DNA from: Campylobacter sputorum
GTDB taxonomy: Bacteria > Campylobacterota > Campylobacteria > Campylobacterales > Campylobacteraceae
Direction of reading: 5' to 3'
NCBI RefSeq assembly: GCF_002220775.1
Contig: NZ_CP019685.1
Coordinates: forward strand, 1 to 64,000
Length of the DNA: 64,000 bases
Positions 34,473-37,164 of the stretch are shown here, in pieces. The notes under the pieces are model-generated. The model saw only the letters and a list, made by a program, of their open reading frames with translations. It made no database searches and was not told the DNA's origin. The position numbers and the translations under genes are program-made. Every line of letters starts with the position of its first letter. The stretch's first letter is position 1.

Positions 34473-34889
34473 TTACATCTCTTTTTTGTAAGTTAGCATT
34501 AGATTATTTCTTAATCTATCGGCATTTTTTTCACCATTTTTTGTATTAGTGCTTATAAATTTATCAATTTTATCTAAAAAAGTAAAAAGCGAGTTTTCCC
34601 AAATTTTACTATCTTTACGATTTGTATTCATAGTTTGTATAAATTTAAGCTCTTTTATAAAATCATCTATTTTTTCATCAAATTCGCTTTTGCTTATTAA
34701 ATTTAAACTCTCATCATTTAAAAACTGCTCTTTAAAGCCCATAAGCTCGTTATTTATAGCTTCACAGAATTTATTATACATGTTAGTATCGTTTGGATCT
34801 TCATCTATTTTTTTGGTTAATTTATTTATCTGTATATACATAACTATGGCAACCATTATGGCTATTGTTATCATTAGTCCTAAATTCAC
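34473..34889 (-). CDS. Small membrane-anchored hypothetical protein
   Basis: The 138-residue product has one N-terminal span (MITIAIMVAIVMYIQI) and an acidic-basic helical remainder with coiled-coil character. I recognise no family. Its start overlaps the rarD stop by four bases, so it is translationally coupled to that transporter. Confidence 0.65.
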   Translation of the reverse strand: MNLGLMITIAIMVAIVMYIQINKLTKKIDEDPNDTNMYNKFCEAINNELMGFKEQFLNDESLNLISKSEFDEKIDDFIKELKFIQTMNTNRKDSKIWENSLFTFLDKIDKFISTNTKNGEKNADRLRNNLMLTYKKEM

Positions 34890-35764
34890 TCTTTTTTCCT
34901 TTTTATCCCATCAAAGCTTACTATAAAAAGTCCAAGCCAAATAAGGCTAAAGCTTATTATTTTACTAATTCCAAGATTTTCATTATACAAAAAAACAGCT
35001 ATTAGCATGCTTAGTGTTGGAGAAATGTATTGCATATAACCAATTGTGGATAATTTTAATCTAATTGCGGCTGAGTTGAATGTAAGAAGCGGTAGAATTG
35101 TTACTATGCCACATATCATTAATAAAATTCCATTTACATTAAAAGCAAAAGAACTTTGATTGTTTATGCCTAAATATGTTAGATAAATTATACCTATTGG
35201 AAATATTAGCATAGTTTCTACAAAAAGTCCTTCAAGAGATGGAACACTTATTTTTTTGTGAAGTAAACCATAAATTGCAAATGAAAGTGGTAAAGCTATG
35301 GAAATTATAGGTAATTCTCCCATATCAATAACTTGTATGCAAATTGCAATAAAGACTAAAAATACTGAAAATTTAGCAGCTATTGATAATTTTTCTTTTA
35401 AAAAAATAGCAGCAAGGAGTATAGACAAAAGCGGATTTATAAAATACCCTAAACTTGTTTGTAAAATTCTATCTGTTGTTATAGCGTAGATAAAAATTCC
35501 CCAGTTTGTTGCTATTAGTAATCCACATAAAAATAGCATTAAGACTATTTTTTTATCACGAAGTATGATTTTTAAATTTAAAAGCCTATTTTTTACTCTA
35601 AGAAGTATTATTAAAATAACAAAAGACCATATTATCCTATGGGCTAAAATTTCAACAGCACCAATATTTTCAAGAAGTTTAAAATATATAGGAAAAACTC
35701 CCCACATTACAAATGTAGAAAGCCCGTATATAAAGCCTTTTGTAGTTTCGTTTTGTATTTTCAT
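34886..35764 (-). CDS. rarD: RarD-type EamA-family transporter
   Basis: The 292-residue protein has about ten membrane spans in two EamA repeats and the RarD hallmarks GLSTFVMWGVFPIYFKLL at the N-terminus, HRIIWSF and ATNWGIFIYAI. RarD proteins are permeases of the drug/metabolite superfamily with uncertain substrates. It is the first gene of a two-gene unit with the membrane-anchored protein. Confidence 0.88.
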   Translation of the reverse strand: MKIQNETTKGFIYGLSTFVMWGVFPIYFKLLENIGAVEILAHRIIWSFVILIILLRVKNRLLNLKIILRDKKIVLMLFLCGLLIATNWGIFIYAITTDRILQTSLGYFINPLLSILLAAIFLKEKLSIAAKFSVFLVFIAICIQVIDMGELPIISIALPLSFAIYGLLHKKISVPSLEGLFVETMLIFPIGIIYLTYLGINNQSSFAFNVNGILLMICGIVTILPLLTFNSAAIRLKLSTIGYMQYISPTLSMLIAVFLYNENLGISKIISFSLIWLGLFIVSFDGIKRKKE

Positions 35765-35799: not shown

Positions 35800-36864
35800 C
35801 TATCTACTTATAATTTTATTTCTGCCTTTTTTCTTAGCCTCATAAAGCAGTTCATCTACTCTTACTAAGCATTTATCTATATCATCATCTTTCATGTATT
35901 GAGTTAATCCTATGCTAGTAGTTATTGGTTTATTATTTGGTAAAAATAGCTGTTTTTCGGTATTTTTTATAATTCTGTCTGCTACTTTTTGTGCTTTTTC
36001 TAAAGTAGCTCTAGGAAGTATTATTAAAAATTCTTCTCCTCCGTATCTTATACAAATATCATTTTCGCGACAAGAGTTCTTTAAAATTTTTGCGAATTTT
36101 ATAAGGATTTCATCGCCAACTTTATGACCATATGTATCATTTACTTTTTTAAAAAAGTCTAAATCAGCCATCAATACGCAAAATTCTACACCCTTTTCCT
36201 TAAAAAGATTGCTAAAAAATTGCATTTCATCAATTAAAATAGAGCGTCTATAAAGTCCAGTGAGAAGATCTAATTTAGAGTTTTCTTCTATTATTTTATT
36301 TGTGATTTTTAACTTGTTTATAGTTTGGGTTAACTCTACTTCTATCTGTTTTTCTCTTGTTATATCCACAATTTCACCTATTAATCCTCTTTGATGAGAG
36401 TTATTTATATGAAAACCCTTACTCCAACAAAGCGAAATTTTTGATTCGCCTGTTTTCATTTTAAATGTTGTGCAGTAGTGATGAATGCTTGCGTTTTCTA
36501 TAAGTTTTAAATCTTCTTTTTGATAAGCCTCTTTTGCGCTAGGTGCTAAATGATCAAGTTCTAAAACGCTTTTTGATATAAAATTTTCTTTTTTTATACC
36601 AAAAAATTTTTCATAAGCTTTGTTGAAAAATATAAATTTAGCATTTTTATCTTTTATGAAAACTGGATTTGGTAGATAATCAATTGCATTTTTGTAAAAT
36701 TCTAAATCTTCTTTGGTTTTTATTAGATCTTGTGAAATTTGTTCAAATTTATTTTTTAGAGGTTGCAAAATTTCTAAAATTTCTTCATCTAAATCATTCC
36801 AATTTATGGTTTTTGATTTATCTATCTTTTGAGACCATAATTTGAGGCTTTTTAAAGGTTCCAC
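35800..36864 (-). CDS. PAS-GGDEF diguanylate cyclase
   Basis: The 354-residue cytoplasmic protein has a helical N-terminus, a PAS domain (residues about 60-180, with YLPNPVFIKDKNAKFIFFNKAYEKFFGI) and an active-looking GGDEF domain with LTGLYRR, LMADLDFFKKVNDTYGHKVGDE and RYGGEEF near residue 270, so it should make c-di-GMP. The only plausible start is GTG 36864, whose first G is the last base of a G10 tract; an in-frame TAA lies just before the tract and no upstream ATG reads through it. The tract therefore sits in the leader, where its length could set expression. Confidence 0.9.
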   Translation of the reverse strand: MEPLKSLKLWSQKIDKSKTINWNDLDEEILEILQPLKNKFEQISQDLIKTKEDLEFYKNAIDYLPNPVFIKDKNAKFIFFNKAYEKFFGIKKENFISKSVLELDHLAPSAKEAYQKEDLKLIENASIHHYCTTFKMKTGESKISLCWSKGFHINNSHQRGLIGEIVDITREKQIEVELTQTINKLKITNKIIEENSKLDLLTGLYRRSILIDEMQFFSNLFKEKGVEFCVLMADLDFFKKVNDTYGHKVGDEILIKFAKILKNSCRENDICIRYGGEEFLIILPRATLEKAQKVADRIIKNTEKQLFLPNNKPITTSIGLTQYMKDDDIDKCLVRVDELLYEAKKKGRNKIISR

Positions 36865-36873
36865 CCCCCCCCC
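36864..36873 (-). repeat. G10 homopolymer tract at the start codon of the diguanylate cyclase
   Basis: Ten consecutive C on the plus strand (G on the coding strand) are followed by eight T (A8 on the coding strand, 36874-36881). It is the only G/C run of this length in the window. Tracts of eight to eleven G are the classic contingency loci of Campylobacter. Here the tract ends in the GTG start codon and can also act as the ribosome site, so slippage would alter leader length and not reading frame. Confidence 0.9.
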
Positions 36874-36883
36874 TTTTTTTTAT

Positions 36884-36889
36884 ATTATA
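36884..36889 (-). promoter_or_regulatory. -10 box of the diguanylate cyclase, immediately upstream of the A8G10 tract
   Basis: On the minus strand these bases read TATAAT. Transcription starting about seven bases downstream would begin inside the A8 run, so the entire leader would be a few A followed by G10. The remaining spacer up to the DAHP synthase start at 37165 is very AT-rich and must hold the divergent promoter, but I see no further structure in it. Confidence 0.5.
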
Positions 36890-37164
36890 TGTATTTTTAC
36901 ATATTAGCCCTTTATGTATGATTAAATTAGAAATTAATATATTTTTTTATCAATACATTAAATATATTTGTAAATTTACTATATTTTTTAAATTTATCAA
37001 GATTTTAATCAAATTACTAAACTTTTTTATTCATAAATCTAAATTAAAGTTTAAAAAAACTAAGTATAATATTAAAGTTTAAAAAATGTAGTAGAAAAAT
37101 AAATTATTATTTTTTTATATGAGCAATACAGCATATAAATAAAAATTATTTTTAAAGGAATTTT

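What the first reader, a model, noticed from the sequence alone, without database searches (positions are those of the whole stretch)
36862..36900. G10 contingency-type tract fills the leader of a diguanylate cyclase
On the minus strand, TATAAT (36889-36884), A8, G10 and the GTG start codon follow one another with nothing between. An in-frame TAA precedes the tract and no upstream ATG reads across it, so it is a leader tract and not a coding one. Slippage would change leader length and the ribosome site while the frame stays fixed, giving graded c-di-GMP output and not on/off switching. Coding or intergenic poly-G phase variation is known in Campylobacter; a tract that is both the ribosome site and part of the start codon of a c-di-GMP synthase is, to my knowledge, not described.
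Basis: partly seen in the sequence, partly recalled or inferred. Interest (0 to 1): 0.8.

Follow-up and report, generated by a model that had tools for sequence, protein, structure and literature searches.

The report
Poly-G tract as ribosome-binding site
In a Campylobacter sputorum-type bacterium, a slippage-prone run of ten Gs takes the place of the ribosome landing site of a gene that probably makes the second messenger c-di-GMP, so copying errors in the run should tune how much enzyme is made; the parts are each of known kinds, but this combination was not found in the papers searched.

Summary
On the minus strand TATAAT (36889-36884), AT, A8 (36881-36874), G10 (36873-36864) and GTG (36864-36862) follow each other. 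It is the only G/C run of 6 or more in the window (about 0.0008 runs of 10 expected). No upstream ATG/GTG/TTG in any frame reaches the tract. The gene is an intact PAS-GGDEF protein. The 1742-base 16S gene points to C. sputorum. The only ortholog among 153 family genomes (82% identity) has an ordinary Shine-Dalgarno (AGAGGAGG, 5 bases, TTG) at the same point, so the tract sits where the ribosome site sits and is lineage-specific. A chemoreceptor gene of this genome shows the same replacement (A8-G9-T-ATG for AGAGGAG...ATG). Pairing with the genome's own 16S tail suggests a lopsided rheostat: 8 Gs or fewer nearly off, 10 on the shoulder, more Gs level or a few-fold higher. The genome has 20 G>=8 tracts, 11 at chemoreceptor or GGDEF genes, several in leaders or promoter spacers. 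Length variation and expression were not testable. Leader poly-G control (H. pylori tlpB, M. tuberculosis espR) and phase-variable c-di-GMP enzymes (C. difficile pdcB) are known; a tract fused with ribosome site and start codon of a GGDEF gene was not found in the papers searched.

The parts
36864..36873 (-). G10 tract (C10 on + strand); last G is the first base of the start codon
36874..36881 (-). A8 run; with the 5' Gs forms AAAGGGGG, complementary (8 pairs, one G-U) to the genome's 16S tail CACCUCCUUU
36884..36889 (-). TATAAT, candidate -10 box; a start about 7 bases downstream would fall in the A8 run (inferred)
   Evidence: exact hexamer, weak by itself in AT-rich DNA
36862..36864 (-). 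GTG start codon
   Evidence: aligns with the TTG of the ortholog; next in-frame ATG/GTG/TTG is TTG at codon 33
35800..36864 (-). PAS-GGDEF protein, 354 aa, predicted diguanylate cyclase with GGEEF active-site motif and RxxD I-site
34886..35764 (-). EamA-family transporter, downstream on the same strand (35-base gap), possibly cotranscribed

Best explanation
The tract is a simple-sequence contingency tract that has replaced the Shine-Dalgarno of a predicted diguanylate cyclase gene. Transcription probably starts in the A8 run, giving a leader of about 12-17 bases made almost only of A and G. AAAGGGGG at the 5' edge of the tract pairs with the 16S tail, and the remaining Gs form the spacer to GTG. 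Slipped-strand mispairing would add or remove Gs, changing SD-to-start spacing but never the frame. Predicted result: 8 Gs or fewer nearly silent, 9 reduced, 10 on the shoulder, 11 or more equal or somewhat higher, partly offset by stronger leader folding. Shown: anatomy, start position, absence of any reading-frame switch, replacement of the SD relative to the sister genome. Inferred: TSS, length variability, effect on enzyme amount and on c-di-GMP.
For: Tract and frames. Ortholog has AGAGGAGG-ACAAG-TTG where this genome has A8G10-TG. 16S tail CACCUCCUUU; pairing -9.5 kcal/mol for AAAGGGGG against -10.5 for the ortholog SD. Length model under two spacing conventions and five TSS choices. Same replacement in a chemoreceptor gene: AAAAAAAAGGGGGGGGGTATG against AAAAAGAGTAGAGGAGTTAAAGATG. 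A third gene starts G9-TT-ATG. 20 tracts of G>=8 against about 0.8 expected. Orthologous tracts differ in length between the two genomes (G10/G11 at one chemoreceptor, G9/G10 at another locus), and four near-identical promoter copies carry G10, G10, G8 and G11. GGDEF gene under purifying selection, dN/dS 0.21.
Against: No reads and no second strain with the tract, so variability at this locus is unobserved. The one ortholog lacks the tract, so no conservation supports function. TSS not mapped. The pairing model is a simple ungapped energy sum with spacing parameters taken from memory of the E. coli RBS Calculator, and its threshold shifts by one G with the spacing convention.
Confidence: 0.6

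Rival explanations
1. The length effect is mainly transcriptional: the A8/G10 run lies in the first transcribed bases and changes start-site choice, reiterative transcription or promoter escape, not ribosome binding.
For: The candidate -10 box puts +1 inside A8. Poly-G length in promoters is seen elsewhere in this genome (TTGACA-AC-Gn-AGTGA-TATAAT before chemoreceptors).
Against: Here the tract is downstream of the -10 and cannot alter -35/-10 spacing; the SD-replacement pattern points to translation.
Confidence: 0.15
2. A C/U-rich small RNA pairs with the G tract and represses translation, as RepG does on tlpB in H. pylori, with tract length setting the strength.
For: Same phylum; in H. pylori a leader G-repeat of 7-12 G is the repressed range (PMC8295292).
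Against: No such RNA was looked for here; in tlpB the G-repeat is drawn apart from the ribosome site, here it is the site itself.
Confidence: 0.1
3. The tract is a neutral or decaying replacement of the SD without regulatory role; G10 simply works as a ribosome site.
For: Tract absent from the sister genome; the sister gene itself is off its SD-TTG frame through an A7 run, hinting that loss is tolerated.
Against: G>=8 runs are about 25-fold over expectation, and 11 of 20 lie at chemoreceptor or GGDEF genes; dN/dS 0.21.
Confidence: 0.15

Closest known systems
H. pylori tlpB/hp0102 leader G-repeat with RepG sRNA (PMC8295292)
   Same: Variable G run in a leader of a signalling gene in the same phylum; output set by length, gradual, frame untouched
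   Different: Needs a small RNA; the repeat is separate from the ribosome site and start codon; targets are a chemoreceptor and an LPS gene
M. tuberculosis espR 5' UTR homopolymer (PMC11898584)
   Same: Poly-G in the 5' UTR; one extra G changes translation
   Different: Proposed to act through leader folding over separate SD sequences; tract 144 bp upstream of the gene
C. difficile pdcB/pdcC (PMC9286219)
   Same: Phase variation of a c-di-GMP enzyme
   Different: By DNA inversion upstream of phosphodiesterases, not by slippage at a GGDEF gene
Promoter-spacer homopolymers (N. meningitidis porA, from general knowledge; chemoreceptor genes of this same genome)
   Same: Homopolymer length would tune amount, not frame
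   Different: Act on -35/-10 spacing; here the tract is downstream of the -10

Membership tests
Poly-G contingency (phase-variable) locus of Campylobacter | G/C tract of 8 or more, far over chance | tested here: met
Poly-G contingency (phase-variable) locus of Campylobacter | Tract length varies within or between strains | not testable with these tools
   no reads, no second strain; the sister genome lacks the tract. Other tracts do differ between the two genomes
Poly-G contingency (phase-variable) locus of Campylobacter | Length changes expression | not testable with these tools
   model only
Coding (frame-switching) poly-G tract | Tract lies inside a reading frame with an upstream start | tested here: not met
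   no ATG/GTG/TTG in any frame reads into the tract
RepG-type sRNA-controlled leader G-repeat | C/U-rich sRNA partner | not tested
   none searched
Promoter-spacer homopolymer | Tract between -35 and -10 | tested here: not met
   tract is downstream of TATAAT
Active diguanylate cyclase | GGDEF domain with GG(D/E)EF motif | tested here: met
   Pfam GGDEF 4e-39; GGEEF, RxxD I-site
Active diguanylate cyclase | Makes c-di-GMP | not testable with these tools
   needs an assay

The most novel reading that the evidence does not exclude
In C. sputorum, A8-9/G9-10 runs have repeatedly replaced ordinary Shine-Dalgarno sequences of signalling genes (this GGDEF gene and the chemoreceptor of L124, possibly the gene of L121), making a class of slippage-tunable ribosome sites that sets c-di-GMP and chemotaxis levels cell by cell with a threshold near 8-9 Gs.
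Probability: 0.35. Interest if true: 0.65.

Novelty: new variant of a known kind. Interest (0 to 1): 0.5.

Why it matters
If the tract varies, a second messenger that controls motility and attachment would be diversified at the translation-initiation step by a single mutable ribosome site, giving cells different c-di-GMP levels without changing the protein. It also gives a clean case for measuring how SD-to-start spacing drives phase variation, because the frame never changes. It fits a wider pattern in this genome: chemoreceptor and GGDEF genes, rather than surface structures alone, carry many of the slippage tracts.

Tried and rejected
The genome-contig scan returned only distant GGDEF domains. 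The ortholog is absent from 151 of 153 family genomes at E 1e-40, so tract length could not be compared across species. A family-wide search for G8-N(0-7)-ATG looked like enrichment (266 against 151 in the first 61 genomes), but most of the 30 sampled places are coding tracts with a chance out-of-frame ATG; about 4 of 30 (L177, L188, L201, L202) look like true leaders, so the raw count is not evidence. Frame switching by an upstream start was tested and rejected. C. iguaniorum and C. ureolyticus were considered as the source and rejected on G+C, genome size, or lack of tracts and chemotaxis genes. The 2017 comparative paper on C. sputorum and the first RepG paper are not held.

Full report
Observation. 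The minus-strand sequence reads TATAAT (36889-36884), AT, A8 (36881-36874), G10 (36873-36864), TG, with GTG at 36864-36862. It is the only G or C run of 6 or more in 64 kb; a first-order Markov model from the window expects about 0.0008 runs of 10 or more. The ORF (354 aa, 35800-36864) is PAS + GGDEF with GGEEF and an RxxD I-site.

Frame. Translation of the three upstream frames shows no ATG, GTG or TTG that reads into the tract; the one nearby ATG is followed at once by TAA. Tract length therefore cannot switch the frame. The first alternative in-frame start is TTG at codon 33.

Source. G000 is 1,681,311 bases in one contig; its 16S genes are 1742 bases, the length given for C. sputorum with its intervening sequence (PMC12453555), and window G+C of 28.6% is close to the 29.2-29.7% reported. 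The related genome G001 is 87-96% identical in the neighbouring genes, compatible with a second C. sputorum lineage. The name rests on these marks, not on a record title.

Relatives. Only G001 among 153 family genomes has the ortholog (82% aa). There the leader reads ACAAAAAGAGGAGGACAAG-TTG, a normal SD, aligned with A8G10-TG here. The N-termini MEPLKSLKLW and MQTLKNLKLW match only if one base of an A7 run in G001 is passed over; as assembled, the SD-TTG frame of G001 stops after 15 codons, so that gene is switched off, decayed or dependent on slippage. dN/dS between the two is 0.21.

Other tracts. G000 has 20 tracts of G>=8 (about 0.8 expected). Contexts: ribosome-site or leader type: this gene; L124 chemoreceptor, A8-G9-T-ATG, where G001 has AGAGGAGTTAAAG-ATG; L121 long exported protein, G9-TT-ATG; L122; L129 chemoreceptor with CZB domain, G10 here and G11 in G001. 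Promoter-spacer type before chemoreceptors: L123, L126, L130, L131, L139 (TTGACA-AC-G10/10/8/11-AGTGA-TATAAT in four; 14 matches of the general pattern in 10 genomes and none for the reversed control). Coding: chemoreceptors L127 and L135, hemerythrin-GGDEF L128, and surface or sugar genes. In all, 11 of 20 lie at chemoreceptor or GGDEF genes. Orthologous tracts differ in length at L129 (10/11) and L133 (9/10).

Mechanism. The genome's 16S ends in CACCUCCUUU. AAAGGGGG pairs with it over 8 positions (-9.5 kcal/mol) against -10.5 for the ortholog SD. With RBS-Calculator-type spacing terms, relative rates are G8 0.02-0.07, G9 0.08-0.38, G10 1, G11 1.5-2.9 on pairing alone; leader folding holds longer tracts to about 0.9-4.5. 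The threshold moves by one G with the spacing convention. This is a lopsided rheostat: steep below 10, flatter above. TSS, slippage and c-di-GMP effect are inferred.

Known kinds. Leader G-repeats with gradual output are known in H. pylori (PMC8295292) and a 5' UTR poly-G acting on translation in M. tuberculosis (PMC11898584); c-di-GMP phase variation by inversion is known in C. difficile (PMC9286219, listed, start of abstract only). Eight literature searches found no slippage tract serving as ribosome site of a diguanylate cyclase; the library is open-access only, and the main C. sputorum genome paper is not held, so the tract may have been listed there. Verdict: new variant of a known kind.

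Noticed in passing
L126, L130, L131, L139, L123 (G000): Five chemoreceptor genes have poly-G as the -35/-10 spacer; four share TTGACA-AC-Gn-AGTGA-TATAAT with G10, G10, G8, G11 (spacers 17, 17, 15, 18).
   Followed up: partly
L128 (G000:681679-681687): A hemerythrin-GGDEF gene carries an in-frame coding G9 that its G001 ortholog lacks.
   Followed up: partly
L153 (G001:1721369-1721378): A PAS-GGDEF gene carries A9G10 near its 3' end.
   Followed up: no
L002 (G001), start of the ortholog: An A7 run puts the SD-TTG start out of frame by one base: off, decayed or slippage-dependent.
   Followed up: partly
L203-L210 (another genus of the family): TTGACA-(G9 to G16)-TATAAT promoters before GTPase-like and other non-chemoreceptor genes.
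   Followed up: no
L150 (G001:1551410-1551425): A G16 tract, the longest seen in the two genomes, downstream of a 430-aa ORF.
   Followed up: no
G000:582077-582535 and 1476631-1477089: Two GGDEF genes with identical scores, apparently a duplicated pair, each within a few kb of an rRNA gene.
   Followed up: no
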